A stretch of 64,000 nt of DNA from Cladorhizidae sp. MBARI D1340-BT2 (taxonomy: Eukaryota; Porifera; Demospongiae; Poecilosclerida; Cladorhizidae): assembly GCA_028752905.1 (NCBI GenBank), contig JAQNBH010000017.1, positions 38,959,929 through 39,023,928 of the forward strand. The letters run 5' to 3'. The position numbers and the translations under genes were made by a program. This document shows, in pieces, positions 19,332 through 55,719 of the stretch (its first letter is position 1; every line of letters begins with the position of its first letter). The notes beneath the pieces are model-generated. The model saw nothing but the letters and a program-made list of their open reading frames with translations. It had not been told where the DNA came from and did not search any database.

Positions 19332-20160
19332 ATGGATACGGTGTCAGAAGTGTTGAAGACTATGATGGCGGTCATGCAGGATCAACAGAAGCAAAAAATT
19401 GAGGAACAGCATGAATGGCGAGAGCTGCAGCGTGAGCAGTTCGAACAGCAACTGATATTATTGAAGGGTGTAAGTCGAGGACGACGAACCGGAGTTGATG
19501 AATGCTTGAGTAAACCAACAGTCGCATCACTGGGTTTACAGTTTCTGACCGATGACGTGGATATAGATGACTACTTAATAGCATTTGAAAGAAGTATGAG
19601 ATTTAATGGGATTGAGAAGGAGCAATGGATGAGATATTTGACACCACAGTTGAAAGGAAAGTCGCTAAGTCAGTATAGTGCTCTAGATGAAGATTCTGAA
19701 TAATTATGATGATGCAAAACTTGCCATTCGAAGGAGCTTTGCTGTCAATGCAGAAACCTATCGGCAGAGATTGAGAGCTACTAAATTGAAAACAGGAGAT
19801 GATGTGACTGATTTGGCAATACAAGTGTATACTTTGGCAGATAGATGGCTTCAGGAATCTGAAGATAAAGTGTAAACTGTGGCTCTGGAGCAGTATAATG
19901 CAATACCACAAGAAATTGCAGAGTGGCTGAGAGATCAACAGCCTGCAACTCTGATGGAGGCTGCTGGAAAAGTAGTGGAAGACCAACAAAACCATAAGAC
20001 AAAGGAATGTCATCATGGCAGATATCCACGAGGTAATACATTCAGAGAATCCAAAGGAAATGAAAGGAGCAACGAGACTTACAAAACCCATCAACAATTC
20101 AAAAATAAGGAATACAGTCGTGAGTCATCTAATAAGATAACATGCTACAATTGTAGAAAA
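19332..20160 (+). pseudogene. gag of Gyp-B
   Basis: The reading begins near the ATG at 19332. An N-terminal segment is rich in Gln/Glu and looks like a coiled coil (QQKQKIEEQHEWRELQ). Then come ASLGLQFLTDDVDIDDYLIAFER and WMRYLTPQLKGKSL, the capsid-like start. The frame changes near 19685 (YDDAKLAIRRSF, LRATKLKTGDDVTDLA), and a TAA at 19873-19875 interrupts it before EIAEWLRDQQPATLMEAA. So there is one frameshift and one stop in an otherwise continuous gag. Confidence 0.75.
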
Positions 20161-21048
20161 TTAGGCCATATTGCTAAGAATTGTCCGGAGAAAGCATTCC
20201 TGGTCAAGGAGTCAACTGTGGAGGATATGTGCTGCAAGGGAGAAGTAAATGGCAGACTCGTTAGCAACATCCAGATTGACACCGGAGCTTGCAGAACAGT
20301 AGTAAGAGAAGATCTTGTTCCAAGACAGAGTTGGAAGGACTCAACAGTAAGGCTAAGAATAGCAGACAACACCGAAGTGAAATGTCCAGTGGCAAATGTA
20401 AAAATCAAGACAGGAAATAACACTTATCAGGTTGAGGCAGCAATTGTGAGGCAATTGCCAGCTGATGTGCTCCTTGGCAGGGACGTGTTGCTCGGGGAAG
20501 GTGTTCCCTTGCTAGAATACACCCTGGAACATATGGAGACAGAAGAAATCAAGCAGACCTTAGAGAGGATGCTGCAGAATGGAGTACTGAATCCAGAAGC
20601 AATAATAACGGAGCCTTCAGAGGGGTATGTACTAGCCGTTGAGACAAGAGCTCAAAAGATCAAGAAGTTAAAGGAGGAGGTTCAAATGAGAAACCACGAA
20701 AAAGAGTCCGGAGGAAAACTCACCCCAATCGAGACATCTGTCGTAGAGGATGTCCAACCAGCAATGACTGAGAGTTCAGTCATCAACATTGAACCATCTG
20801 TAGAAACAGATGAGGAAGTTGCGATGGAGCACCCCATACTCGATTCCAAAGAGTCAGAGGAATCACAAACAGCAGATGAGGTTGAGGAGAACCCATTTGA
20901 CTCCTTTGCAGAAGAATTGTTTGGAGTACATCGACCCCATCGCAAGAATTTGTCTAAGGCTCAGAAGAGACGTCAGGATAGACAACAGAGGACTCAGCAT
21001 CAGGATCTGGATCCTGAATTAATTAAGAAAGCTGGAGGAAGGCGATAA
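19879..21048 (+). CDS. gag C-terminus, zinc knuckle and protease of Gyp-B (open but part of a broken element)
   Basis: This 389-codon open stretch continues gag. It carries a canonical CCHC knuckle CYNCRKLGHIAKNC (about residues 89-102 counted from the first Met). The aspartic protease follows with IDTGACRTVV (catalytic Asp about residue 134) and ADVLLGRDVL at the end of the fold. A Glu-rich linker of about 170 residues ends in LIKKAGGRR. The next frame (LRKLEEGDKKSR) continues into integrase, so one frameshift near 21025 separates protease and integrase. The listed start is simply the first Met after the upstream stop, not a real initiator. Confidence 0.7.
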   Translation: MALEQYNAIPQEIAEWLRDQQPATLMEAAGKVVEDQQNHKTKECHHGRYPRGNTFRESKGNERSNETYKTHQQFKNKEYSRESSNKITCYNCRKLGHIAKNCPEKAFLVKESTVEDMCCKGEVNGRLVSNIQIDTGACRTVVREDLVPRQSWKDSTVRLRIADNTEVKCPVANVKIKTGNNTYQVEAAIVRQLPADVLLGRDVLLGEGVPLLEYTLEHMETEEIKQTLERMLQNGVLNPEAIITEPSEGYVLAVETRAQKIKKLKEEVQMRNHEKESGGKLTPIETSVVEDVQPAMTESSVINIEPSVETDEEVAMEHPILDSKESEESQTADEVEENPFDSFAEELFGVHRPHRKNLSKAQKRRQDRQQRTQHQDLDPELIKKAGGRR

Positions 21049-21732
21049 GAAAAGCCGTTTTTATCGGAAGAATGGAATTCTCTTCCGAAAATGGATTCCC
21101 AGAGAAAGTCAAGGAGAGGAAATAGTGGTACCAGGTGGGTACAGGAGAAAAATATTGCAGTCGGCTCATTCAATTCCTTTAGCAGGACACATGGGATGAG
21201 ATAGGACAGCTAATAGATTATTGAAAAGATTCTTTTGGCCAAATATTTTTCAAGATGTTGCAGAATATTGTCAGTCATGTCCAGAGTGTCAGAAGGCATC
21301 CCGAAGAACTGGAGGAAGAGCACCAATGATACCCTTACCAATAATGGGACAGCCATTTGAGAGGATTGCGATGGATATCGTAGGACCTCTACCTAGAAGT
21401 GTCAAAGGATACAAGTATGTGCTGGTAGTGTGTGACTATGCGACCAGATACCCCGAGGCTACACCTATGAAGACGTTTACAGCGGATGCAGTGGCAGTGG
21501 AGTTAGTTACATTGTTTTCTCGGTATGGAATACCTAAGGAAATCCTTACTGACCAAGGCACTAATTTACTACTACAGCTACTGTACCAACTATTAGGAGT
21601 ACAGCCGATCAAGACAATACCATATCATCCACAAACGGATGGAGTTGTTGAATGTTTCAACAAGACATTAAAGGATCTGTTAAGAAGAATCATACAAGGA
21701 GAAGAGCGTGAGTGGGGAAAATATCTACCCTA
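21026..21732 (+). pseudogene. Integrase of Gyp-B, N-terminal and catalytic parts
   Basis: RKNGILFRKW leads into the zinc region: SAHSIPLAGHMG with its histidines, a TGA at about 21198, then CQSCPECQKAS. The catalytic core has MDIVGPLPRS (first Asp), LTDQGTNLL (second Asp) and PYHPQTDGVVECFNKTLK (catalytic Glu). The frame is broken by the MITE after KYLPY at 21732. Apart from one stop and the upstream shift, all catalytic residues are present. Confidence 0.8.
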
Positions 21733-22578
21733 TTAACATACCCTCCAACTGTCCCGGAAGCTCCGGGACGGTCCCCTTGATAAAATGTGTCCCGCACGGA
21801 TTTGGTGTTTGTCCTGGATTAGTAATTGTTGTACAATTTACAACTGGCTACGGCACTGTTAGACTATTTATTACCTGGTCTAGCGCGCGGGTGGAAAATT
21901 GAGGGCGTTGAAAATCAACGCCTTCAATTTTGTCTGATATGTCAACAAAGTCAATTGGGCGAGAGAAGAGCTGGAGCTAACCGATCCAGTTCTCTGTGGA
22001 GACTATTCAAGGAGGATGACCGAGCTAGAAGAAGTTCTCTGTGGAGACTATTCAAGGAGGAGGACCGAGCTAGGAGAAAGGCACCAGGTAAATTTTTAAC
22101 GACGGTGATTTGTATGCGTTTCTCTGGCCAACTCGCTTTAGGGTCTAGTAACTTGCCTATAGTTATAGTTATGAAATATTTTTTATATCAAAAGAGAGCA
22201 CACAGAGAGACCTATCTTTTGAGCTATATATCAAGTCCATACCATGAATCAATCGTTCCCCCCCCCCCGCTCGACTAAAGGCTCCTCCTTATATATACTA
22301 TAGCAGCTGTCAATTTACAACTGGCTACAGCACTGTTAGACTAAAGGCTCCTCCTTAGCAGCTGCCAATTTAGAACTGGAAACAGCACTGTGAGACTAAA
22401 GGCTCCTCCTTAGCAGCTGCTACACCTGTTGCCCATACACAAGTCATTCACAACTGACAAGCGGAGGAAAATCCAGCTGCCAGCATCTACATACATGTAC
22501 TACTATATATAATTATATTCATGGTGGGTGTGGTCAATGTCCCGGATTTCAATTTTGAAAAGTTGGAGGGTCTGCTAG
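21733..22578. mobile_element. TA-flanked MITE inside Gyp-B integrase (846 bp)
   Basis: The termini TTAACATACCCTCCAACT and AGTTGGAGGGTCTGCTAG are imperfect inverted repeats. TA is duplicated at 21731-21732 and 22579-22580; a 3-bp TAT duplication is equally possible. Removing the insert restores the integrase reading across YLPY-LLFAYRE. It encodes no protein. Inside are two small tandem repeats (a 45-bp unit at 21987-22076 and a unit of about 65 bp near 22300-22430). Segments shared with the foldback element at 41820-43298 lie at about 21868-21930 and 22131-22250. Confidence 0.8.
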
Positions 22579-22673: not shown

Positions 22674-22825
22674 CTAAAGGCTAGATATAAGAGGAGGAAA
22701 GAGAGTCTGGGGGGAAATGGAGTATATATGGCGCAAGGGGTGTATCAGTATCGGCATATGAAGAATCGCCAGCAAGTGAAACAACAGGAGAAGGCACTCG
22801 GGGAAAGAAGTCTGATTGCAAAAGG

Positions 22826-24163
22826 GTGGTGGAGAGAGGGGGGAGAGTGGATGGAGGCCAGGAGGAAAAGTCAAGGGGAACGTATCTACTGCGATTTGGT
22901 ACATGTGGGCTGTCAGGGGGAGAATCGCTGGTGGACAACAACACAGAGAGGGATGGAGAGAGGCAAGAACCGTCAGGTGGGGGAGCACCGGGAGGGGATT
23001 CATACAGGGAAGGAGCACCTGCTGGCCAAAGCAAAGATGTCAATGAGCATGAACAAACCCAAGCAAAAAGTATGTTGAGGAGGGTGGGGGTTGGGAGTGG
23101 GACCAAAGATAGGGAAACTGGGCGGTTGAGAGTGGTGTTTGTTAATTGTAGAGGATGGTGGTCAAGGGAGGTGGATTTGAAGGTAGTGTTGGGAACGAAG
23201 AAGTTTGATGTGTTGGGATTAGCGGAGACATTTTTGCAGAAGGAGGATGAGGTGAGTGTGGCAGGATATGAGTGGTATGGCAGGAATAGAGAGGGTGGCA
23301 GGCGGGCGAGTGGAGGTGTGGGAGTTATGGTGCATGAGAGTTTGGAATCTAGGGTGAGGAAGTCAAGAGAAGGTTTGCTGTGGGTGGAGTTAAGCGGAGC
23401 GGGGAGAAGAAAAACTATGGTAGGGGTAGTGTATGTGAACCCAGAAGGAGTGAGAGTGAGAGAGACGGAGGGATTGTTTGAGGTATTGCAGGAGAACGTA
23501 GTGAAGTATGAAGAGAAAGGTTTCGATGTTGTTATGATGGGGGACTTCAATGCAAAGATTGGATGAGGAGTGGAGGACAACCTAAACAGTAATGGAAGGC
23601 GGTTGTTGGAGTTGGTTAGGGTAGGAGGTCTGGTTGTGGGGAACGAGTTGCAGTGCTGTGAGGGCAGGTGGACGTGGGAATGTGGGGAGAGAAAGTCGGT
23701 CACAGACTATATGTTGTTTAGTGAGGACATGGATGTAGCTAAGGTGGTAGTTGAGGACTCAGGCAAGCTGGATGTGGGGTCGGACCATAACATTATTTGT
23801 GGAGAAATTACGTGGGGTAGGAGAGAGGTACAAATGAGAAGAGAGCGACATAAATGGAGAGTTGACAATAGGCTAGACTGGATGGAGTATCAGGAGGCAG
23901 TGGAGGAAATGTTCATGGGGTGGGAAGAGGATGTGAGAGAGCTTGAGCAAGAGTTGGGAGGAAACATAGTTGAAGAGGTGTGTGGTAGGTGGAAGGAGAA
24001 AGTTTTGGCTGCAGCGGAGAAAGGAATTGGAAGGAAGAAGATTACAGACAGGTCAGAGGGATGGTGGTCAGAGTATGTGGAGTGGTTGATTGGTGTCAGG
24101 AAGGAGAAATGTAAGAGGCTGAGGGAAGCCAGGAAGAGAGGGGAGAGAGAGGCTCTACATTAA
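22826..24163 (+). pseudogene. Endonuclease domain of the LINE
   Basis: Open stretches 22826-23566 and 23570-24163 are in the same frame and separated by one TGA. Motifs in order: VFVNCRGWW, VLGLAETFL (catalytic Glu), GGVGVMVHE, VVYVNPEG, MMGDFNAKIG (catalytic Asp-Asn), SVTDYMLF and GSDHNIICGEI (Ser-Asp-His). This is the normal order for an APE-type endonuclease. One stop lies immediately after the GDFNAKIG motif. The linker to reverse transcriptase is rich in Lys, Glu and Arg. Confidence 0.85.
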
Positions 24164-24201
24164 GACAACTATGGGATGACTATAGGGAAGCAAGAAAGGA
24201 A

Positions 24202-25614
24202 GTGAAAAAGACTATTAGGATAGAGAAGAAGGAATTGAGGAAGAGAACTATAAAGAAGATTAGAGAGCAGGGTGGGACTAGTTGTAAGCTGTTTTGGAAT
24301 GATTTAAGAGCAAAGAGGAAGGAGAGAAGGATAAAAGGAGTGAGAGATGATGAGGGAAGGATGGTAGAGGAGGAAGTCGAGGTGTTGGAGGTGATGGCAA
24401 AACACTGGGAAGAGCTGGGGAGAAAAAAAGAGGATGCCACAGTACAAGAATTAGAGATGGGAGAAGTGAATGAGCATGAGCTGGGTATGTGTGAAGAAGT
24501 AAGTTGGGAAGAAGTAGTAGAGGTATTAAAGTGTTTGAAGAGAGGAAAGGCTCCAGGCCCTGATGGAATGTTGAATGAGATGCTGATGTATGGAGGTAGA
24601 AGGTTGGTGGAAGTGATGGTGCAGGTGATGAATGTGGTGATGAGGATTGAGTGCTGCCCAGTGGACTGGAAGAGGAGTTTACTAGTACCTCTCCACAAGG
24701 ATGGTGACGAGGACGAAGTAGGGAATTATAGGGGAATTTCATTGTGTTGTAATGTGGTGAAGGTGTTTGCGAGAGTGTTGGCAAGGAGGTTGGGAGTGTT
24801 CGCTGAGGATAGGATTTTGACGGAAGCACAAGGAGGATTTAGGAGACAGAGGAGATGTTCAGACCAGTGGTTGGTGTTAAGTGGAGTTTGTGAAGTGAGG
24901 AAGAGCGAGAAAAAAGCTTCTTAGCTGGCTTTCCTGGATATAAGTAAGGCATATGACAGTGTGTGGAGGGAGGGACTGTGGCAGAAGTTGAGGCAGTATG
25001 GAGTAGAAGAGAAGCTTGTGAGGACATGTGTAGGATTGTATAGTGGGGTGGAGACGACGGTGGTATTGAATGGAAGGAGGTCAAGGTGGTTCACTGTGGA
25101 GAATGGACTTAGGCAGGGATGTCCTTTGTCTCCACTTCTTTTCAATATATATTTGATGGGAATGGCAGAGGAATTGGAGAGAGCTGAGCTAGGAGTCAAA
25201 GTGGAAAGCTGCTGGTGTGGGGCACTCATGTATGCAGATGATGTTGTTCTTCTGGCTGACTCAGGGGTGGAACTGCAAGCTATGTTGGATGTGGTACAGG
25301 CGTATGTGTTAAGGTGGAAGATGAAATTTAATAGCAAGAAGAGCAAGGTCATGGTAGTAGGGAAGAAGGAATCAGAAGTGCATTGGAGGATTGGTGAGGA
25401 GATATTGGAAGAGGTCAAAGAATTCAAGTACTTAGGAATATGGTTTGATAGGAAGCTAAGGGGTAATGTTCAGTTAGAGAAGATGGCAAAGAAGGCAGAA
25501 GAGTGGGTTGGAAAGGTAATATGGATGAGTAGAGTGAGTGGGCAGGTGGAAGTAGACAGAGGAAGAATGGTGTGGGAGCTTCTCAGTATGGAGCATGCAG
25601 CCGAAGTGTGGTAG
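24202..25614 (+). pseudogene. Reverse transcriptase domain of the LINE
   Basis: Two open stretches are split by TAG at 24922-24924. Motifs: GKAPGPDGMLNEML, LLVPLHKDGDEDEVGNYRGIS, EAQGGFRRQR, then LAFLDISKAYDSV (catalytic Asp), NGLRQGCPLSPLLFNIYL, LMYADDVVLLAD (Y-x-DD-type active site) and KFKYLGIWF-like thumb. All catalytic residues are visible, but the stop truncates the protein. Confidence 0.85.
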
Positions 25615-25620
25615 ACAGGA

Positions 25621-26499
25621 GGACGTAATGCTCGCAAGAAGTTGGAGTCAGCACAGCTGAGAGTGGGTAGGAGACTATTGGGGGCAAGTGATACAGTAGC
25701 AGGAGTGGCAATACGGGGAGATATGGGGTGGAGGAAGCTAGAGGAGAGGAGGGAAGAGATGAAGGTTTTGTTTGGCAAGAGATTAGAGGTGTTGGAACAG
25801 AGCAGATTGATAATAGTTGTTGTAAATAAACTACGAGAGGATGGAGGAATTGGATGGTGGGAAGAATATGAGATCTTGAGGAGAAAGTACGAGATAAACA
25901 ACGAGGTTGGGTCAGTGCGCAAGTGGAAGGGGAAAGTGAAGGTGAGAAATGAGGACTGGGAGGAGGAAGTAGACGGAAAAAGTACGCTGAATTATTATAA
26001 ATCAGCAAAGAATGGTGCAGGGGTGGAGAGGTATGTGAGGTCCATGCATGGTCAGGAAGGTGTGCGGCTGCAATTTAGACTGAGGACTGCATCAGCTGGG
26101 TTGTTAGAGGATAAGAAGAGATGTGGGATAGTTAGAGATGAGAGGTGTATAATGTGTGATAGTGGAGCAGGCGAGGATGTGGAACATTTCTTGGTGACAT
26201 GCGGGGAATTTGAGAGGGATCGGCTGGTTCTGATAGATGAGGTACGCAGAATTGTAGGGGCAAGACAGTGGCTGGATGAATTAAGAAGAGTGAGTAAGGA
26301 TGGAAAGGTGGCATTGCTTTTGGGGAAAGATGTGGAGGGAGTAAGTGATGCTGTGATGGAGGAGGTGGGCGAGTGTGTTATGTATTGTGTAGGGAAGTGG
26401 TGGCAGAGGAGAAAGGAACTGTTATATGGTGAGCTGAGGAATGATCTTTGGTCCACTCCTGTCCCCCCCTTCCTGAGCAGCGGGACACTCGTAACTTAA
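25621..26499 (+). pseudogene. C-terminal domain of the LINE with CCHC zinc motif
   Basis: After a TAG at 25612-25614 the frame continues with ESAQLRVGRRLLGAS and other conserved LINE C-terminal sequence. CIMCDSGAGEDVEHFLVTC follows (C-x2-C-x8-H-x4-C), the zinc motif found after reverse transcriptase in several LINE clades. It ends at TAA 26497-26499. Confidence 0.8.
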
Positions 26500-26652: not shown

Positions 26653-27000
26653 ACAGTGGAGTAATGCAGAGGAACCAGTAGATGATGTTCTGACCTATGT
26701 AAACAAGGTGCGGGAAAGGATTGGAAGCAGCTAGGGAGATCGTCGTACAGAATATGAAGAAATCTCAAAGGAAGCAGAAGGAATGGTATGACCGAAAGGC
26801 TCGTGATTTGAAACTGAAAATTGGAGACCAAGTGCTGGTGCTACTGCCAACATCTACAAGAAAACTCTTAGCCCAATAGCATGGTCCATACAAGGTGACA
26901 AGAACTATTGGAAAAGTGAATTATGAAATCGAAATGCCGGAAAGAAGGAGAAAGAAAGTGATATTTCACATCAATATGCTGAAAAAGTGGCGGACACAAG
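26653..27000 (+). pseudogene. Integrase C-terminal domain of Gyp-B
   Basis: After the LINE the reading resumes with EQWSNAEEPVDDVLTYVNKV and continues, with frame changes, into LKIGDQVLVLLP and HGPYKVTRTIGKVNYEI. This is a GPY-type integrase tail. It runs without a boundary into the reverse transcriptase open stretch that begins at 26895. Confidence 0.75.
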
Positions 27001-28563
27001 AGAAAGATCAAGGTTCTATAGAAGAAACCTTATGTGTAGTTGAATCAGAAGACTCATTGAATGAAGAGAACATAGCTGAATGGAGAAATGAAAATATATC
27101 AAGTGAATTGAATATGGGAAAACAACTGGATAAGAAACAATGTCAGGAATTACAGGAACTACTGAGAATATTTCCTGAAATTACTTCAAACAAACCAGGA
27201 AAGACAGAATTAACTTATCACAGTATACTAATAACAGAAGAGAAACCAATTCGACAACAACCGTATAGGATACCGCGAGCATACCAGGAACAGGTGGAAA
27301 AAGAATTGCAAGAAATGTTAGAGCAGGGAATTATAGAACCATCCCGGAGTGAATGGACTTCACCGATTGTTGTGGTGAAGAAAAAAGACGGAGACATACG
27401 AATATGCATCGATTACAGGAAGCTAAACGCCATGACGAAAATAGATGCATACCCAATGCCAAGAATTGATGACATATTGGATGAGCTTGGGCAGGCAAAA
27501 TACATCACTACACTAGATTTAGCTAAAGGGTATTGGCAGGTACCAGTGAATCCACAGGACCAAGAGAAGACAGGACCAAGAGAAGACAGCATTCAGCAGC
27601 CCACTTGGACTTTTTCAGTTTAAAAGGATGCCATTCGGACTTAGTGGAGCACCAGCGACTTTTCAGAGACTGATGGACAGAATTATTAATGGACTGAGTT
27701 TTACCAATGCTTATCTAGATGACTTGGTCATTTATAGTTCAAACTGGCAAGAACATCTATCACATGTGGAACAGATATTTATGCGATTGAGGAAAGCAGG
27801 ATTAACGATCAAATTAAGAAAATGCCAATTAGCTATGGAAGAGTGCACTTACCTTGGACATGTGATTGGAAAAGGAACCACAAGACCAGAACTGAAAGCT
27901 GTAGAGATGTACCCAGTACCTGTTACCAAGAAAAATGTTCGATCATTTCTAGGATTAACTGGCTATTATAGGAGATTTATTCCTAACTATGCTACAATAG
28001 CGAAACCACTCACAGACTTAACACAAAAATGTGTACCAGAAAGAATTCCATGGAGTGTGATGTGTCAAGAAGCTTTTCAAATGTTAAAACAGACACTACC
28101 GGTAGTCAAGAACCCCAATTTTAGTAAGGAATTCATCCTTCAAACAGATGCTTCTGATGTTGGAGTAGGAGCCGTATTGAGTCAGCTGGATGAAAATGAT
28201 CAAGATCATCCTATTGCCTATTTTAGCAGGAAACTCTTACCAAGAGAGCAGAAATATGCGACTATTGAAAAAGAATGTTTAGCTGTCAAGATGGGAATCC
28301 AACATTTCGCAGTTTATCTTATGGGAAAACCATTTCGAATTCAGACAGATCACCGTGCCCTACAATGGTTAAACAATTTCAAAGAGAAGAACAGTCGATT
28401 GACTAGATGGGGTCTAACTCTACAACCTTTCATCTTTACAATTGAACACAAGAAAGGAAAGGACAATGCTAATGCAGACACCTTATCAAGGATGCCAGAT
28501 TATATGCTGCACACTTTAGAAGGAGTGGAAAATGTGGCAGAGCCAGAGAGACAAGTGCATTAG
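26895..28563 (+). pseudogene. Reverse transcriptase and RNase H of Gyp-B, downstream of integrase
   Basis: The frame 26895-27623 starts in the integrase tail and continues into reverse transcriptase: YRIPRAYQEQVEKEL, SEWTSPIVVVKKKDG, CIDYRKLNAMTK, TTLDLAKGYWQVP (first catalytic Asp). A small duplication (CAGGACCAAGAGAAGACAGG) shifts the frame near 27560-27620. The frame 27628-28563 continues with MPFGLSGAPATFQRLM, NAYLDDLVIYS (active site), FLGLTGYYRRFIP and LQTDASDVGVGAVL. TIEKECLAV and IQTDHRALQWL (RNase H) follow, ending at NANADTLSRMPD. A single gag-pol product would therefore have integrase before reverse transcriptase. Confidence 0.85.
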
Positions 28564-28953: not shown

Positions 28954-29440
28954 CAACTAGAATTCATCATAATTCTTTATATGTAGGTCATTATAAACTG
29001 CTGTTGACTGGCCAACACGGCTAGATGCCAAGTCATATTAGTGCCAAGAGCCATTTCCTTATAATGATATTTGCATCTACGTGGTTTGTTGCCAAGCAAC
29101 CATCTTTTTTTAAATCAGCAAATACCTTTCTACCCACTGGACTGGTGGACTGTTGCACCGCCAAATTTGACCAGTTAAATCTGATGGTAAAAAGTTTTTA
29201 AACTTTCTGTTCTTATAAAGATATTCACGATGATGTGGTTTGTTACTAAGCAACCCAAACTTGTTATAATGTCTATCAACTCATCAGGTACCAGCTGATA
29301 TAGGGTTGCTAGGCACTTTTCTCATCACTCTTCCCACACCAAAAAATTATGTCGAAAAAAGAAGAAAAAACACCTTATAAAGGAAGAGGGTAAAACTTAG
29401 CGGCTCGTCATAATGCGCAAGCCATTTCCACGAACAGTTC
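28954..29440. other. Non-coding stretch
   Basis: Nothing recognisable apart from AT-rich sequence and a short A-rich run near 29340-29370. Confidence 0.5.
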
Positions 29441-30030
29441 CAAGTCACGCTGTTCTTGGGTCAGACTGGTCCTGTGCTGTTCTGGGGTCAGAATGGTTCT
29501 GTGTGGGATTGGAATGGTTCTGTGCTGTTCGGGAGTCAGAATGGTTCCAAGTCATGCCTTCTGGAGTCAGAACAGTTCCAAGTCACGCTGTTCTGGGGTC
29601 AGACTGGTTCTGCACTGTTCTGGGATCAGAATGGTTCTGCACTGTTCTAGGTTCAGACTGGTTCTGTGCTGTTCTGGGATCATAATGGTTCTGTGCTGTT
29701 CTGGGATTGGAATGGTTCTGTGCTGTTCTGGTGTCAGAATGGTTCTGCGCTGTTCTGGAGTCAGAATGGTTCTGTGCTGTTCTGGGATTGGAATGGTTCT
29801 GTGCTGTTCTGGGATTGGAATGGTTCTGTGCTGTTCTGGTGTCAGAATGGTTCTGCGCTGTTCTGGAGTCAGAATGGTTCTGTGCTGTTCTGGGATTGGA
29901 ATGGTTCTGTGCTGTTCTGGTGTCAGAATGATTTCAAGTCAAGCAGTTCCAGAGTCAGAAACTTCCAAGTTGCGCTGTTCTGGAATCAGAATAGTTCCAA
30001 GTCACACAGTTCATGAGTCAGAATGGTTCC
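29441..30030. repeat. 27-bp minisatellite with higher-order structure
   Basis: About 21 head-to-tail copies of a 27-bp unit typified by GGTTCTGTGCTGTTCTGGGA plus 7 bp. Between about 29720 and 29930 groups of four units are themselves repeated. All three forward frames stay open because the unit is a multiple of three without stops. The resulting Trp-Phe-Cys-Ala-Val peptides are a by-product, not a protein I can support. Confidence 0.95.
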
Positions 30031-30439
30031 AAGTATCAGTTAGACATTAGCATTGACCATCTCAGCAGAATCCCACTAAAGACAGATATCAGTGTTTGGG
30101 CTAGATTATTCCACTTAGAATTTCTGGACGTCAGCAGTCACACTTACATATTGTCCTGCAAGTGGGGGAAATTTTTTAAATTAACTCCAAGCCTCTCGTA
30201 AAAATGCAAAAGCCCAAAGAGAAGCCTGTGCTGATGAGGAGGAGGTCAGTTCACCGTGAATCTGGTGAGATATGTAGTAGACGACATACTGGGGGAGGAG
30301 GGATAAGCAAGCTTAGGTGGGAGATGCCAGAACAGTCGCAGTTGACTTTGATAATTGCTAGTTGGCAAGCAGTTACATAGGATTACTACCTTTTGAGGCA
30401 GTAATCCATGCCTGCTCACCTGAGCCACAGTAAGTATGT

Positions 30440-31084: not shown

Positions 31085-33095
31085 AGACTTGGAATAGGCA
31101 ACACTGCTAAGAATTAAAGATTTGTCTGTACTGGTAATCATGCTAAATGCAACCATCTCTCTCTCCATCACACTTTCACTGACAACAAAATGCCTTGCAT
31201 TCATCTCTACAAGAAGTGTTATTGGAATTTAAATAAAGTTGCCAAAGAGATTAGCATATGTGCATGGATACTGAAGCATGACCCAATATATAAAATGGAG
31301 TGTTGAGATAGCTGTGAGAAAGCTATAGATACAAATCTCATCTTTAGCTATAACTACTGCTTTGTCCTAAGCCTGATCCAAAGAAAGAGATCACTACTAA
31401 TTTTCTAACCACCCACAGCTTAAGTTAGCTTGAATGCAACTTACTTTGTGTGGTTTTTAATACAACTCTTGACTCTAGAGTGCTGGTAGAAAGTGATAGC
31501 TACAAACCACTGCTGTATTAACAGCTGCACTTGTCTGGCTAGAACCAAAGAAAGAAGTCTAATAATGAAAAACTACAATGCTAGCTGCTACAGCATTCCC
31601 CAATGCCCACAGATTTAGCATCGTCTAGCTATGGAGGGGTGATTAATTTGGAAATAGTTCTCATGTGTATATGAATGGATGCTTGCGCGTATGTGTATAA
31701 TAAGCTATGGGAATAAATATTTTTTCAGAAGAACATCTACCTGTTTCTTATCCAGAATGGATAAAGAACAGAATTGGAGAGAGAGGTAAGTGTCAAAGCA
31801 TGCTTCTGAAACAACAGAAGAAAGACATCGAGATTGGAGGGGGGGAAAGCGAGTGGAAAAAAACTTGATAGAATCACATCAGATTATGGAGCTGGTTCAG
31901 GTAAAGTTACTACACTCCATGTTTCTATAGCGGATGTTGAAGTTTCATTCTGCTAAAAGCTGTGAACAAGTGTGCTCAACTGGAAATAATTATCATGGAT
32001 AATGGCCTTGCTAATTGGAAATGATCATCATGGTCAATTTGAACAGGTTCTCGTCCCAGCCTTGCACTAGTTTGCAATTTGTAAGGAATATCAATATACT
32101 ATTCTTAGCTACTTCTAAATACAACAATCCAAGCAATAAACTCTTATGACATAAATAATTTACACTGGAAGAATACCTAGAGCAATGTGATCTATGCTTG
32201 GAATTAGGACAACAATGTTAGGAATTAAAGTGTTTTTTTCCATGTTGACAATTATGCTAAAACTAATTGTTTTATCTCTCCATCATACTTTTGCTAACCA
32301 CACAATGTACTGCATTCATTTCTAGTATTGCTGTATGGCATGTGTATGTTTCTGTCTATATAATTATGTATGTATGTATTCAACATAATATGACAATAGG
32401 ACAGGGACACCGGTCATAAATATTGTGAGCTTACTAGAAATGAATTCAAGCAATTGTGTGGCAAGTGAAGGTAAAAAACACATTAATTTGACATTTACAT
32501 TAAGTATTGTCCTACTCCAAGGAAATCTGCAGGCCTAACACTATATACACTGATATGTAAATTATTAGTCATCTGATTGGATTGTAATATGGAGAAGTAG
32601 CGAGGAGTCACAGTTTTCAAGCAGTACCCTGCTCAATACGCATAATTTTTGTTAGCGACGATCATTTCCATTTTAACGTAAGTGTTAAGAAAGTGTTGAT
32701 GAATAGAGAGAGTGGCTGAGTCAAAATGGAACTTCACCTGAGCCTAAAGAACTTCTCCATCCTGGGATACTGTGCTTCTCCCAAGATTTCAGTTTGCAGC
32801 TATAGCTTTCTCGCAATAATCTCAATCACTCCATTTTATATTGTGTGCGCTTTAATATCCTTTGAAGCTTCTAAATCTTGAAGGCAATCTTCAATGGCAT
32901 GCTTTCATGGCACTTCTTCCCTTGTAGAAACATGGACAGATGAAGTGTAGAAGCCTTTACTGAGTCAAAGGATGTTTCTCAATGGTGGATGCAAGCACTA
33001 GCTAGGAATAAAAGCAATAAAAAATTAACTACATGTACTGGTAAGATTCGTGTGTGTAAGTGAAAAATAACCGAGAATAGTCACCCGAGCGCGGC
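31085..33095. repeat. Dispersed-repeat segment resembling 37.1-38.4 kb
   Basis: No coding region is found. Parts at about 31260-31570, 31885-31930 and 32380-32700 resemble 37240-37520, 37165-37200 and 38100-38350, with many differences. A second internal similarity links 31115-31200 with 32215-32330. These are old repeat copies flanking the Ginger1 insertion. Confidence 0.55.
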
Positions 33096-33239
33096 CCAGT
33101 GTCACAGGAAATCTGACATCCCCACTTTTTGGTATCCCCATTCCCTAGGAAAGTTCGCACCCCCGTATAGAATTTCCTAAGGATATTGGGTATCCCCAAT
33201 TATACGCCCTAGGAAATATTGCATCCCGCCCGATCACAT

Positions 33240-34609
33240 GGATTTTCCAGAGAGAAGAGAAGAAAAGAACGCCTGCGAGGAGACTATCTACGAGGAGCTG
33301 CACGATTACATTTCAAAGAGCCAATATCCACCTGGAAGTATATAGCAAGCAGGAGAAATGCGTAATCAGAAAGCGTGCCAAAAACTTCCAGATTGTGGAT
33401 GGAATCATTCACTATAAAGGCAAAGAAGGACTTAGACAAGTTGTAACTAGCTGTAAGATGAACGGAAGATACTCGAAGCTTGTCATGATGACTTAGTAGG
33501 AGGATGTCACTTTGGTAGAGATAAAACATTAACAAAAGTATCTGCGCGCTACTACTGGAAAGCGATCAAGCTGGATGTTGATGACTGGGTAAGTAAAATT
33601 ACAGTATGTTTTTTACATCACTCTAGTATACCCATTGCATGGTCTTAGTTGCATTAAACAATGTCCTTTAGGTGAAACGATGTGAAGTGTGCCAACGGAG
33701 TAAACGGAAGTTTGATAAACCAGCACCATCCTTACACCCTATTCCAGTGTCAGACACATGGAAAAAAATTGGAATAGACCTTATCGAGTTGCCTATCAGC
33801 AAAACTGGAAATCATAATTGCATTACGCTTACTGATTACTTCTCAAAATGGGCTGAAGCTCCAATCCCCACAAAGGAAGCGAAGCATGTTGCTGCTTTCC
33901 TTTACCGCATGATCCTTAGACATGGATGTCCTCAGGAGATTGTATCTGATCAGGGTAGGGAATTTTGCAACAAGATTGTCGATTCCCTTGAAGAGTTCAT
34001 TGGATTTAAGCACAAGATCACTAGTGCTTACCATCCTCAATCAAACAGACTGGATGAGCGTTTTAATCAAACGCTGCTCCAGAAGCTCGTTAACGATCAC
34101 CAGGATGACTGGGATTAACTTATAGATAATATTCTATTTGCTTATCGGTCGAGTCGCCAGGATTCCACCAAGTGTACTCCATTTCTTCTAATGTATGGAC
34201 GAGAAGCTCATCTCCCCATTGACATATCTCAAGTGTATGGCGAACCTGATGAACTAGACTTAGACACAAAAGTACAAAGAATGCTTGAGTTTCAGAAAAA
34301 ACTTCATGAGCAACCATATGCAAATATTGAAAAAGCCTAATCCCGTCAAAAGCATCAATACGAGTCAAAGCAATACTAAAATCAAGGTTGGTGACAAAGT
34401 GCTTGTCAAGTTAATGAAGAACGAAGGTCGTAAGGGTTAGGCTTCAGTTCCCTGGAGGTCCACATACAGTTGCAGAAGATATCGGGAAAGGTCGCTATCG
34501 TCTTAAAGGCCCCAAAGATGACTTGCTGAAGACAGCAATCAATTGCCACCGCCTTAAGATATGGTATGATCCTGATGGGAGAAGACTGAATTGCCATGAC
34601 AACAATGAG
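33240..34609 (+). pseudogene. Ginger1 transposase: integrase-like part (two exons)
   Basis: Exon 1 (about 33240-33588) has frameshifts. It carries VGGCHFGRDKTLTKVSARYYW, the histidine half of the zinc region. A phase-0 intron with GT at 33589 and AG at 33670-33671 separates it from CEVCQRSKRKF, the cysteine half. Exon 2 (33672-34609) has GIDLIELPIS (first Asp), VSDQGREFCN (second Asp) and AYHPQSNRLDERFN (catalytic Glu). A TAA at 34116-34118 precedes ILFAYRSSRQDSTKCTPF. Then comes a GPH/GPY-like tail (PGGPHTVAEDIGKGRY) in another frame. The role would be cut-and-paste transposition. Confidence 0.8.
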
Positions 34610-34844
34610 GTAAGATGGTTATAGACAAATATAATGTATATAATTATGATGACAATATGGTATTAACAATTTGAAGCTGGTTTATGCTGTCAAATGTGTT
34701 TTTTTATAAACATGCTCTGTAATTATTTGAAGAGATGGTTATGCTGTCAAACATTTGTTGTTATAAACATGTTAGCTCTGTAATTATTTGTCTCTTCCCC
34801 CTGCCCCTCCCCAAAACAACAATAACAACAACTAAACACTATAG
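34610..34844 (+). other. Intron 2 of the Ginger1 gene
   Basis: It begins GTAAGATGG after a Glu codon and ends with an ATAG acceptor. The reading restored downstream is open from 34845. It contains a 60-bp partial tandem duplication around the ATGCTGTCAAA motif (34684 and 34740). Confidence 0.6.
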
Positions 34845-35742
34845 GATGCAGGTGCTGATGAGAATACTGACCCATCAGCTGATCAACATAAGCCTTTACC
34901 TGTCAGGCTTGCAAAGAGACCCCTGTTACCCCTACCAGTAACTGAACAAAAGCGTCAGAAACTAGATGTGTATCCAGTGATAGTTAGCAGTGGAGAGGAT
35001 GATGAAATTGTTAGTGATGGCTGCTGGCAGAAAATTGGAGGAATCGAACTGGACAAAAATGTACTGCTAAATGGCAGATGGCTCAATGACAAACTGATTC
35101 ATGCAGCACAGCTTCTCATGAAACATGACCTGGATCTACTTCCTTGCAAAGTCTATTTCTTCGATAAATGCTCAGTTTCAACATCGCCAGTGATGAATGT
35201 GTCCAAATACTCCATTCTGGGGGTAATCATTGGGTGACAGTAAGCACTGTTGGCTTCAACATCCCACAGTTCGAGTATATGACAGCTAATCCACTTCACT
35301 CACATACTCTACAAAAGTACAAATAGCATCACTTCTGCACACTACAGAAGAAAAAATTACTTTGGAATATGCCAATGTGCAACAACAGCCAAACTGAGTA
35401 GACTGTGGGCTATTTGCAGTCGCTTTTGCTATTGCTATTTGCAATGACCAGAGCCCAGAAGAGCAGTTTTTTGATGTGGGTCATATGAGGCGGCATTTGT
35501 ACAACTGTATCAAAGACAAGCACTTCCCATCAAAGAAGAGGAAATGTATCCACATGACGAAGAAGGTTGAAGTAATGAAAGCCTACTGGTACTGTAGATT
35601 GCCAGCGAATGAGGATGGAAATAAAATGGTCGCATGTGACAGCTGCTTGGAATGGTTCCATGACACTTGTCAAACCGTCCCTCAAGATGTGTGGAGTAAT
35701 CCAGACTATAAATGGTGCTGTAATCAATGTAGTCATAATTAA
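34845..35742 (+). pseudogene. Ginger1 transposase: Ulp1-like cysteine protease and PHD finger
   Basis: Exon 3 has a Lys/Arg-rich linker, then LLNGRWLNDKLIHAAQLL, the start of a C48 (Ulp1/SENP-type) peptidase. A frameshift near 35205 leads to SGGNHWVTVSTVGF (catalytic His codon 35228-35230). Another leads to NVQQQPN-stop-VDCGLFAVAFA (catalytic Gln and Cys; Cys codon 35404-35406, stop at 35394-35396). I see no clear catalytic Asp. From 35476 the open frame continues to TAA at 35740-35742 with a PHD finger: YWYC, ACDSC, EWFHDTC, then WCCNQC. The first zinc ligand appears to be Trp instead of Cys. The protease would cut SUMO-like proteins or the transposase itself; this is inferred from the family. 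Confidence 0.75.
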
Positions 35743-36583
35743 TACTGTAACTGTTCTATATATAAACATTCAAAATTGTCTATATATCAATGCATGGGAT
35801 TATGGGGTACTAAATATCCTGGCTTTGCATAGTTATATCTATCTATTTACTGATTCAGATTGTAGTTGTCATGATATAAATTGATCGATGCCAATGATTT
35901 CATAAGCCTCCAATGATAAGCAGGAGGTATTGCTTCAGGCCATGACATTAATGGTGGACATCAATGTCAGAAGGTGTGGTTATGCTGTGCCTTCCACCCT
36001 ATATAACACACTGTATTCAGTCCCTTACTGTTAGTTTTTTAAGTCTCTCGAAGCTCATTGGTTAGCCATAAATTATGGTAAAAAATCCTGGTCGGGTTGT
36101 GACTAAATTTCAGTTTTCTTCTCTCTTTAGAGAGGTCTGGTTTAAGGCTTGAGAGATTCTAACCTTATCTTATAAAGGACATTCTTTTATTGGAACGTAT
36201 TCAGAGAAGATCTACTAAGTACATTTTGTCAGACTAGACTATAATTATACTGAACAAGTCCAGATTGAAGGCCCTCCATCCTCTTCCCTCGATGACAGAA
36301 CCTCTAACATCAATGGACAACATTTGAACTTTAGCAATTAGTTGAACTTGAGCTAGCTGATGCTTTCTGTTTGTCCACTTGGGTACACTAACGCTACTGC
36401 TACTCATTTGAATCAGCCAAACTAACTATTAAAAAAAAAGAGAGAGAGAGAAGGGAGAAAAAAATAGGGGGATTCCATATTTCCTAGGATGGGGGTGCCA
36501 AATTTCCTGGGGGGATTCCATATTTCCTTGGATATTTGGAATGGGGGTGCCAAATTTCCTGGGATGCCAGATTTCCTGTGACA
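35743..36583. other. 3' non-coding part of Ginger1
   Basis: No gene. The last 130 bp contain repeated blocks CCAAATTTCCTGGG and TTCCATATTTCCT, which mirror CCTAGGAAA-type blocks in the first 120 bp. They may be subterminal transposase-binding repeats. Confidence 0.5.
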
Positions 36584-36830
36584 CCGGGTGTCTATTCTTC
36601 AGAAGATCCCGGCCCGGGTGACTATTCTTCAGAAGATCCCGGCTCGGGCTCGGGCTAGGGCTAGGGCTTTCTCTCAGAATGCATTCCAGAGCCTGTGTGA
36701 TCATATTGCTCTCCAATTCCCAATGTAGATCTAGCTCGGGTGACTATACTTCAGAAGGTTCCGGCTCGGGTGACTACTTCAGAAGATCGGGTTTTCCTCG
36801 GCCCAGGTGACTATTCTTCGATTGATCCAA
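36584..36830. repeat. Degenerate minisatellite at the Ginger1 insertion site
   Basis: About five copies of CGGGTGACTATTCTTCAGAA plus GATCCCGG-type sequence. A reversed piece lies left of the transposon at 33070-33095 (AGAATAGTCACCCGAG). Confidence 0.7.
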
Positions 36831-37735
36831 ATAATCTTACCTTGTATTACCATCTTTGTATCTTTAATAGTCCTATAGTAATGAATAAAACTTGGGAGGA
36901 GAGAGGGTAGGCAAATGCACAAGGATTGGATAAATCTGGAATTAAAACCAGCATCAACCTGATTCATCAGACAAAACTTGGCTACTTCTAGCCAAGTCTC
37001 TGAGACAGTTAATGAATTCCCTTATTATCATACTTTATAGCCTTATCTAGCTAGTAGCTAATCTAGCTAGCTACACATTGAAACTTGTTTGGATTCAAAA
37101 CCAATCGTAACTGTAGCTAATTAATTTTATTGCCTTCATGGCCATCATCGAGAAACTTCCGTAGGCTCAGGTAAAGTTTCTACACTCCATCTGTCCATAT
37201 TTCTACAAGGGACAAAAGTATGTCATTGACTAAACCCTTTTAGACATTGGAAATTTGAGACGGACACCAAAGTCTGACACAATATATACAATAGAGTGCT
37301 TGTGAGTAATCTATAGCTACAAACCTCACCTATAGCTCTATCTACTGTATGATCCAAATAAATAAATAATCATTCTTAGCACCCACAACTTAGTTTAGCT
37401 TGAGCTACGCAACCTCCTTTGTTTAGTTTTCAATACAGCTCTTGCTTCTAGAGGTTGAGAAAGCTGTAGCTACAAACCACAGCTCTGCACTAGTCTGAGG
37501 ACCAAAGAAAATAGAAAAACTTGAGGTTCAGCTACATCCCTCTCAAAGTTTTCCTCTCCTGATGCTGGTGATAAAGTTTTCTTCATGGGGTGGGGAGGTT
37601 ATGATCTCTACCACAAGTAGGCAGGTTTTCTTATATATAATTGACTTCTATAGCAAGCCATACCCTGACTGAATGATTCTTACAATGCCTTGTGTCACTG
37701 TAGATTACGTAATATTTTACAGGACATTATTATAT
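36831..37735. other. Non-coding, dispersed-repeat DNA
   Basis: No gene recognised. The segment 37165-37520 resembles 31.3-31.9 kb (see that entry). Confidence 0.5.
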
Positions 37736-50615: not shown

Positions 50616-53600
50616 TTATTCGTAGTTAGGGTATCGTTTGATTGGCTTTGCCTCTCTCTCACTTCGACGAGGGCCGGGTGGGGGGGTCGGCGGGAAGGAG
50701 GGTGTGGGGATCATGGCCACATTTTTCGGGTTGGCTTTGACGTGGCGATGGGGGGAAGTTGGGGTTCCGGCTACAGAGGCGTATGAACGTCGGCCGGCAG
50801 GGGTGATGAGGACCAGTTGGTGAGGCTGGACGTTCGGTGTTTGCTGTGGCAGGGTCGGTGGTGTCGGTGGAGGCAGTCTCATCGGAGCTGGCTGAGGTGG
50901 CTGCATCGGGGTTTGAGGGTGGATCTGAGGGGGGATAGAGGATGGGGGGGTAATGGGTGGATCAGGTGGTTTGGGGGGGTTGTTTTGGGTAGGTGGGGCC
51001 GAGGGGGTTGGGTGGTAGTGGTCGGGGAGGCTTCGATGGAACGGGTTGTCTGGTGGTGGTGGGCCAGTAGTCTGTCGACGGAGGAAGCGGCGGTTTCTCA
51101 TGGTGAGTCGTCCGTTGCCGTCCATCTTCACCTGGTATTGGTGGTATTGCATGACTTCGACGACCACTCCTGTCTTGTCCCACTTCGTCGGGTGGCGGCC
51201 CGTTTGGTTTTGGACGAATACATGGTCACCACGACGAAGGGGGGAGAGGCCGCCTGTGTGTTCATCCCATCTTGCTCGGCCGAGGGATTGGCGGTGTGAT
51301 AGTGCCAGCTCTCTTTGGCGGAGCCGGTTGTCCGAGTCCATAGGTGGTCGGAGCTGGGCAGGTATGCCGGGGAGCAGGTCTCGGATGGGTCGACCGTACA
51401 GGCTCATGGCCGGGGACATCTTAGTGTCTGGGCTGGGGCTATTTCGATATTGAAGTATTGCCTTGTAGAAGGGGGACTGTAGACATCCTCCGGGGCCTGT
51501 GTTCCCCGCAATCAGACGCTTCATTGTTTTGACGCCTGTCTCTGCCCGGTTGTTCGAGTGGGGGTTATAGGCAGAGGAGATCCTATGGTGGACGCCCCAG
51601 TTGGAGAGTAGCTCCCTGGTGGAGTGGGACGCAAACTCGGGTCCGCCGTCTGATGTGAGAGACGTGGGTATGCCGAAGGTGGCAAACGTGCTGCGGAGGA
51701 TGTTGGCCAGGCCAGAGGCTCCGTTGACGGCGGGGGCGACGATGGGCCAGCCAGAGTACCGGTCGACCAGCACAAGATATGCGGATCCCTCGTGATGGAA
51801 GAAATCCGCACAGATGTGCTGGAAGGGGTACTCTGGCTCCTCAGGTGTTGTGGAGGGCATTGCGGGCTGTGATGGGGCATTGCCGTTACAAATGGGGCAG
51901 CCGTTTCTGGTGGCCGCGATGTCTGAGGTGAGTCCTGGCCAGTAAAGAGATGACGAGGCCCTGGCAGTCATTCCACTTGTGCCCTGGTGTGCAGCATGGA
52001 GGGCAGATAGACACGTTGCTTGTAAGGAAGCTGGTATCACCACGCGGTCTCCGTAACATACCACATCGTCTACGATGTATAGGCTGTTGATTATGGGGAA
52101 GAATGACCTGATGGAGGCGGGTAGCATGTGCCTGCTGTCCGGGGGGCCTTCTTCGACATAATATATTAGGTCCTGCATGGTGGGGTCGGCTGTGGTAGCA
52201 ACTTGCAGTTGTTCCCAACTGATAGGGATGGTGGATATGGCAGCACAGATTGCGGGCTGGAGTCCGTCGTCTTCGTGGATGGCGAGGGTTGAGTGTGAGC
52301 TTGCTAGGCAGGCTGGGTTGGGTGATTGGAGGTCATCGGGGAGGTGAAGTCGTGGTGGTGTTCGGGTCCCGGATGGGTGGCGTGAGAGGGCGTCGCTGGT
52401 GTGGTTTCTCACGCCAGGGATGTACATCATCCGGAACCGATAGCGGAGCGTTTTTTCCTTCAGGTTGCGCAGGCGTGGATTCGGGATGTCCTCGAGGCAG
52501 CGATCCCCGAAGAGCTTGAGCAGTGGCTTATGGTCCACTGCTACAACGAGGTCGCTGCACCCGAGGACGAAGTGGCGAGCCTTGTCCAGAGCGTCGGCAA
52601 CAGCAAGGGCTTCGCCCTCCACGGGGGCGTATCGTGACTCTGCAGCGTGGGTGAAGCGCGAGCCCACTAGGGTGACGCGCCAACCCTCTCGGCAGCAGAA
52701 CAAGTCACGGGACGGGCACTGGCAGTGTTTTTGAAGCAGCCAGAACCCGATCCCGCCCTTGCTCCAATCGGTGGCCAGGCAGGTTGGGCGGTCCTTGTCG
52801 AAGATCTCAACACCGACCCTGATGCGCTCGCAGATGTGGTTCTTGGAGGCTGTGAAAGCCTCGGCAAGGTCACTCGTCCATTCGAATGGTGTGGTAGGTT
52901 TGAGGAGGGCCCGGAACGGCTGCATCGCCGTGGTCATCGCGAAGGTGTAAGAAACTTGGTTTACAAGCCCGAACCATGCCCTGATGTCTGTGATGCTGGC
53001 TGGGGTGGGGAAGTCGGTGATTGATTGCAGGTATTTGTCCGCTGGTTTGACCTCCGTGGGAGTGATGGTGAATCCAGCAAATTCCACGGTGTCTTCGGCG
53101 AAGCGAAACTTGCGTGGGTTTAGGGTGATACCGTTCACGGCACAGATGTGGAGCCACTCAGTCGCTTGGTGGAATGCCCCCGTGATGTCGTTAGACCACA
53201 GTAGTGCATCGTCGATGCATTTGGTCTTTGACATCACGGTGGCGACGAGGGCATCGTACCTGGCCGTGTAGGCATCACCCGAGGCGATGTAACCTTGGGG
53301 GGCGGTGAGATAGCGATATCTACCCCATGGGGTGATAAACGTGGTAAAGTGGCGGTCTTCCTTGGAGAGTGCAACTGAGTGGTAGCCATTCCACGCGTCG
53401 AATATGGTCTTCTTGGTTCGGCGTGGAATGGCTCGGGCTTGGTGGAACGGAGATGGGCAGTGGTGTGTCTCCCGTGTAGCATGCTTGTTCAGGGGTTGGA
53501 AGTTGATGGTCCTCCTGAGCGACCCGTTCTTCTTGGTGCATATCACCATGCGGTGGCACCAAGTGACGGGTGTACCCAGGGGGACCCTCTCTAGCACGCC

Positions 53601-55658: not shown

Positions 55659-55719
55659 GATCCCCTAGCCAGCACTCTTGCTGGTGGGGTCTAGTGGCTA
55701 CCGAAGGCTATACTAGCAG

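What the first reader, a model, noticed from the sequence alone, without database searches (positions are those of the whole stretch)
33096..36587. Ginger1 transposon encoding integrase, Ulp1-like protease and a PHD finger
The termini (TGTCACAGG...), CCGG-type target and integrase-Ulp1 fusion fit Ginger1. The C-terminal PHD finger (ACDSC, EWFHDTC, WCCNQC) in the same gene is not part of the arrangement I know. It could direct the element to histone marks. The gene also has two introns, which argues for a cut-and-paste DNA element and against a retrotransposon.
Basis: partly seen in the sequence, partly recalled or inferred. Interest (0 to 1): 0.75.

Follow-up and report, generated by a model that had tools for sequence, protein, structure and literature searches.

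The report
Decayed Ginger1 transposon with PHD finger
This is a dead copy of a known kind of animal jumping gene (Ginger1) whose enzyme carried a protein-cutting domain and a chromatin-reading PHD finger, a combination already described in Hydra, so it is an ordinary new member.

Summary
In detail: 33096-36587 is one Ginger1 DNA transposon. It is 3,484 bp, ends in TGTCACAGGAAAT, has imperfect terminal inverted repeats of about 115-128 nt, and is flanked by CCAG and CCGG. It codes for H2C2 zinc, DDE integrase, Ulp1-like and PHD parts, with two GT-AG introns inferred from sequence. That integrase-Ulp1-PHD is new is wrong: Bao, Kapitonov and Jurka (2010, PMC2836005) list Ginger1-9_HM of Hydra as 'Ulp1, PHD', with 2 introns, 3,758 bp and a 120-bp TIR. 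Proteins with all these domains exist in the freshwater sponge Ephydatia muelleri (P0004, P0005). The window's copy is dead by my reading of its frames: five in-frame stops and six frame changes, and the PHD's first zinc cysteine reads W. The element sits between the arms of an older inverted repeat. The host is probably a sponge (inferred). Other copies in the same genome could not be checked, because the genome search did not complete. Verdict: new member of a known kind, low interest.

The parts
33096..33099 (.). Left target-site duplication, CCAG
   Evidence: read; one mismatch to the right copy CCGG
33100..33227 (+). Left terminal inverted repeat (about 128 nt, imperfect, TGTCACAGGAAAT...)
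   Evidence: local alignment with the right end
33238..33588 (+). Exon 1: YPYY-like stretch and first part of the H2C2 zinc-binding domain; two frame changes
   Evidence: frames; PF17921 2.4e-12 on 33457-33591
33589..33671 (+). Intron 1 (GT-AG, 83 nt, phase 0)
   Evidence: splice sites read; relatives P0001 and P0002 begin about 10 residues before this boundary with intron-like residues, then continue as exon 2 does
33672..34609 (+). Exon 2: CxxC of the zinc domain, DDE integrase core, GPY/F-like region (reads GPH); three in-frame stops and two frame changes
   Evidence: PF00665 7.3e-11; alignment; frames
34610..34844 (+). Intron 2 (GT-AG, 235 nt, phase 0)
   Evidence: splice sites read
34845..35742 (+). 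Exon 3: linker, Ulp1-like protease region and PHD finger, stop at 35740-35742; two frame changes and two in-frame stops
35060..35520 (+). Ulp1-like cysteine protease region (NHW, VYDS, DCGLF stretches), spread over three frames; bounds approximate
   Evidence: Peptidase_C48 1.5e-4, above cut-off, on the exon-3 read-through; alignment with C48 relatives; phmmer within the 127 fetched proteins, P0004 6.1e-34, P0024 2e-32
35584..35730 (+). PHD finger, first zinc ligand reads W
   Evidence: PF00628 8.7e-8, 1.1e-7; PDB PHD chains; ligand table
36469..36583 (-). Right terminal inverted repeat (about 115 nt), with short subterminal repeats
36584..36587 (.). Right target-site duplication, CCGG

Best explanation
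A degenerate, no longer autonomous copy of a Ginger1 cut-and-paste DNA transposon of the Ulp1 + PHD type (Ginger1-9_HM-like), probably in a sponge genome. When intact, one spliced gene made a transposase. Its zinc and DDE integrase parts would bind the TGTCACAGG ends and join them to CCGG targets, giving a 4-nt duplication (inferred from family knowledge and the termini here). The Ulp1 part would cut SUMO or ubiquitin-like modifiers (inferred). The PHD finger would bind a histone H3 tail, most likely methylated K4, and bias where the element inserts or on which chromatin it acts (inferred, untested). The present copy has lost coding capacity.
For: TIRs, TGTNR end and CCAG/CCGG flanks; integrase, Ulp1 and PHD domains; published Ginger1-9_HM with Ulp1, PHD, 2 introns and near-equal size; four-domain proteins P0004 and P0005 in Ephydatia muelleri; stops and frame changes; PHD matches in the PDB to PHF1, PHF2 and Spp1 for the window and to PHF2, DIDO1, BPTF and Spp1 for relative P0020, with the same cage positions.
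Against: The two target-site copies differ at one of 4 bases. Pfam did not call Ulp1 on single pieces or on a shortened read-through, and the later hit is only 1.4 bits above its cut-off. The GPY/F motif reads GPH. No transcript, and no second copy in the same genome, could be examined (genome search did not complete). Host identity is inferred only.
Confidence: 0.93

Rival explanations
1. A Gypsy LTR retrotransposon remnant whose integrase happens to lie near a host Ulp1-PHD gene.
For: The integrase is Gypsy-like, many lower-ranked hits are Gypsy polyproteins, and Gypsy-like frames lie elsewhere in the window (by eye).
Against: Inverted terminal repeats; no reverse transcriptase or gag family on the frames of the element that were scanned (not every frame was); GT-AG introns; Ulp1-PHD fused to the integrase in relatives.
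Confidence: 0.02
2. A domesticated host gene derived from Ginger1 (as with Gin-1 and Gin-2).
For: Such genes exist.
Against: This copy still has both TIRs and a near-identical 4-nt target duplication, and its reading frame is broken in all three exons.
Confidence: 0.02
3. A Ginger1 element that captured the PHD finger on its own, as a new arrangement.
For: The PHD is in the same inferred exon as Ulp1, and most listed relatives carry no PHD by precomputed Pfam (5 of 120 do).
Against: Ginger1-9_HM already has Ulp1 and PHD, and 9 of 127 fetched relatives carry a PHD stretch.
Confidence: 0.02

Closest known systems
Ginger1-9_HM (Hydra magnipapillata; Bao, Kapitonov, Jurka 2010, PMC2836005)
   Same: Integrase with C-terminal Ulp1 and PHD, 2 introns, 120-bp TIR, 3,758 bp (Table 1); Ginger1 targets are CCGG (75%) or CCGT/ACGG (24%)
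   Different: The window's element is 3,484 bp, sits in another (probably sponge) genome and is decayed; the sequences were not compared directly, since the Hydra consensus was not at hand
Ephydatia muelleri Ginger1-type proteins P0004 (EMCRGX_G016548) and P0005 (EMCRGX_G013057)
   Same: H2C2, rve, Peptidase_C48 and PHD in one protein, all above the curated cut-offs
   Different: 36% and 40% identity to the window's read-through in the alignment; P0004 also has a cysteine-rich insert before Ulp1
Unnamed ENA proteins P0001 and P0002
   Same: Closest integrase matches, 65% and 73% identity over 42% and 32% of the query
   Different: Gene calls that start at intron 1; Pfam finds no PHD in them, and P0002 has only a sub-threshold C48 hit

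Membership tests
Ginger1 | 5' end TGTNR | tested here: met
   TGTCA at both ends
Ginger1 | TIRs of about 40-270 bp | tested here: met
   128/115 nt, imperfect and gapped; 1 of 500 random pairs scored as high
Ginger1 | 4-bp CCGG or CCGT/ACGG target duplication | tested here: inconclusive
   right CCGG, left CCAG: 3 of 4 positions match
Ginger1 | Length 2.6-7 kb | tested here: met
   3,484 bp
Ginger1 | H2C2 zinc finger and DDE integrase core | tested here: met
   PF17921 and PF00665 above cut-off; D, D, E stretches present
Ginger1 | YPYY motif before the zinc finger | tested here: inconclusive
   a QYPPGS stretch is present but a frame change follows at once
Ginger1 | GPY/F motif | tested here: inconclusive
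   reads GPH; relative P0001 reads GPY in the same column
Ginger1 | C-terminal OTU or Ulp1 protease | tested here: met
   Peptidase_C48 22.1 bits, cut-off 20.7, on the exon-3 read-through; negative on single pieces and on a shortened read-through
Ginger1, Ulp1 + PHD type (Ginger1-9_HM) | PHD finger after Ulp1, 2 introns | tested here: met
   PF00628 8.7e-8; two GT-AG introns from sequence, no transcripts
Ginger1, Ulp1 + PHD type (Ginger1-9_HM) | Same clade in a tree with Ginger1-9_HM | not tested

The most novel reading that the evidence does not exclude
The PHD finger of Ulp1 + PHD Ginger1 transposases is a working reader of methylated H3K4, kept by selection and steering integration to active, GC-rich chromatin. 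This would be a built-in chromatin-targeting module in a cut-and-paste transposon, in both cnidarians and sponges.
Probability: 0.35. Interest if true: 0.55.

Novelty: new member of a known kind. Interest (0 to 1): 0.2.

Why it matters
By itself it adds one decayed copy to a family described in 2010. It matters mildly because it and the Ephydatia proteins show the Ulp1 + PHD form outside Hydra, and because the PHD's conserved H3K4-reader positions make histone-guided integration directly testable with an intact relative.

Tried and rejected
A Gypsy remnant, a host gene and a new PHD capture were considered and rejected (see rivals).

The same call scanned 9 further frames of the element on both strands: nothing reached a curated cut-off (best PF19188, 0.003, below its cut-off). 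A scan of bacterial and archaeal genomes with the integrase exon gave one locus from 27 pattern matches, a 35-residue match at 43%, not followed up. A scan of viral contigs with the Ulp1-PHD end gave nothing.

Paper searches: the first held 469 papers, 20 listed, and gave PMC2836005. 'Ginger1' with 'PHD finger' gave 0 papers, probably because the 2010 paper does not print that exact phrase. Ginger with sponge terms held 65 papers, 15 listed, none with Ginger in the title (listing only). The 2026 Imagin paper's main text holds none of PHD, Ulp1, OTU, CCGG, sponge or Porifera (term search only). PHD fingers with transposase terms held 22 papers, 10 listed, none with Ginger in the title (listing only). 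One script with a faulty pattern printed nothing and was corrected.

Full report
What is there. The stretch 33100-36583 is a single DNA transposon of 3,484 bp. Both ends read TGTCACAGGAAAT, and the inverted repeats align over 128 nt on the left and 115 nt on the right, with gaps. Of 500 random pairs of 130-nt stretches of the window, 1 scored as high (258 against 105.5 observed; overlapping pairs were not excluded). The 13-nt end alone is not above chance at 2 mismatches. The ends carry short subterminal repeats. The flanks are CCAG on the left and CCGG on the right, so the 4-nt duplication differs at one base.

Coding parts. On the + strand, an ATG at 33238 opens exon 1. Inferred GT-AG introns lie at 33589-33671 and 34610-34844, both in phase 0, and the last exon ends at a stop at 35740-35742. 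Separate pieces hit Integrase_H2C2 (2.4e-12), rve (7.3e-11) and PHD (8.7e-8). Ulp1 was not called on those pieces, nor on a first read-through from which I had left out part of the region. On the fuller exon-3 read-through Pfam calls Peptidase_C48 at 1.5e-4, 22.1 bits against a cut-off of 20.7. Of 10 relatives scanned, 7 have a C48 hit, 6 of them above the cut-off (P0003, P0004, P0005, P0010, P0020, P0024) and P0002 just below. All of these but P0010 are in the alignment, where the window keeps the NHW, VYDS and DCGLF stretches. The exon-3 read-through matches P0123 at 2.7e-36 and P0004 at 6.1e-34 within the 127 fetched proteins. These were fetched with queries that included this region or its relatives, so those numbers are not independent.

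State of the copy. By my reading of the frames there are five in-frame stops (three in exon 2, the third at a frame change, and two in exon 3) and six frame changes, two in each exon. The PHD's first zinc ligand reads W. Among the 127 fetched proteins, 9 match a PHD pattern that allows only C or W at that place, and 9 of 9 have C. The copy cannot make a working full-length transposase.

What it is. Bao, Kapitonov and Jurka 2010 (PMC2836005; abstract, part 1 of 5 of the text with Table 1 and the legend of Figure 1, section 8 and passages seen) describe Ginger1 by TGTNR ends, TIRs of about 40-270 bp, 4-bp CCGG or CCGT/ACGG duplications, a Gypsy-like integrase, and a C-terminal OTU or Ulp1 domain in all but one of their families. 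Their Table 1 lists Ginger1-9_HM from Hydra as 'Ulp1, PHD', with 2 introns, a 120-bp TIR and 3,758 bp; the legend of Figure 1e says that the PHD domain is boxed. The window's element matches this description closely. The PHD is therefore not a new part.

Relatives. A protein search gave 193 proteins, of which the best 120 were listed. By the precomputed Pfam labels of those 120, 8 carry PF02902 (Ulp1), 5 carry PF00628 (PHD) and 19 carry PF02338 (OTU); others are Gypsy polyproteins or pieces. In one search, 10 were scanned. P0004 and P0005, both Ephydatia muelleri, have H2C2, rve, Peptidase_C48 and PHD all above the curated cut-offs. P0003 (Em prefix) has all four, with PHD below the cut-off. 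P0008 has H2C2 and a partial PHD above the cut-off, rve below it, and no C48 call. P0020 and P0024 lack most of the integrase but have C48 and PHD. P0066 has only a PHD hit below the cut-off. P0001 and P0002 have no PHD. By pattern, 6 of 127 proteins carry a full PHD together with Ulp1, and 3 of these also the integrase pattern. The best-scoring proteins that bear an organism name are from a sponge, so the host is probably a sponge; this is inference, and no host gene was tested.

How it would work. Steps shown by sequence: the ends, the target type (one of two copies exact), the domain order, the introns (from sequence only) and the decay. Steps inferred from family knowledge: end binding and CCGG-directed joining by the integrase, and removal of SUMO or ubiquitin-like modifiers by Ulp1; the 2010 authors suggest an active role of the Ulp1 and OTU domains in transposition, perhaps through DNA repair. 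For the PHD, sequence search of the PDB gave PHF1, PHF2, MTF2, Spp1 and Pps for the window's piece (13 distinct sequences). For relative P0020 it gave PHF2, DIDO1, BPTF, TAF3, Spp1 and others (42 distinct sequences). That several of these bind H3K4me3 is recalled, not taken from a call. The positions that form the aromatic cage in such fingers (recalled) read, in the 9 relatives, Y or F before the first C in 8 of 9, M in 8 of 9 and W in 8 of 9; the exceptions are P0003, P0124 and P0066. This makes H3K4 reading plausible but does not show it.

Surroundings. The element lies between the arms of an inverted repeat, 32918-32988 and 37142-37212, 71 nt, 83% complementary, read as an older element into which it inserted. 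It sits beside a 30-nt tandem repeat that contains CCGG. By eye, the rest of the window holds many other transposable-element frames.

Limits. The genome search did not answer in nine tries, so other copies in the same genome were not seen. No transcripts were available. The Hydra consensus sequence was not at hand for direct comparison, and no tree was built.

Noticed in passing
32918-32988 and 37142-37212: Inverted arms of 71 nt (83% complementary) flank the Ginger1 element, which seems to have inserted into an older foldback or MITE-like element.
   Followed up: partly
36584-36648 and 36737-36776: Tandem 30-nt repeat CCGGGTGACTATTCTTCAGAAGATCCCGGC at the insertion site, with a further diverged copy; 17 nt of it lie inverted at the left flank, 33074-33090.
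   Followed up: partly
31266-31553 and 37262-37510: Two copies of about 250-290 nt at 69% identity near the element, another dispersed repeat.
   Followed up: no
19876-21736 and 26880-28563, with 22691-26499 between: A Gypsy-like polyprotein that looks split by a non-LTR retrotransposon with endonuclease- and reverse-transcriptase-like frames (read by eye from the frames, not tested).
   Followed up: no
50616-55664 (- strand): An open frame of 1,682 aa that reads like a gag-pol polyprotein of an LTR retrotransposon, without stops, so perhaps young (by eye).
   Followed up: no
57207-59688: Frames that read like a hAT-type transposase or ZMYM-like protein (by eye, recalled resemblance).
   Followed up: no
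29394-30050: Short tandem coding-like repeat open in several frames on both strands.
   Followed up: no
P0004, P0020, P0024 (relatives): A cysteine-rich stretch lies between integrase and Ulp1 in these three proteins and is absent from the window's element.
   Followed up: no
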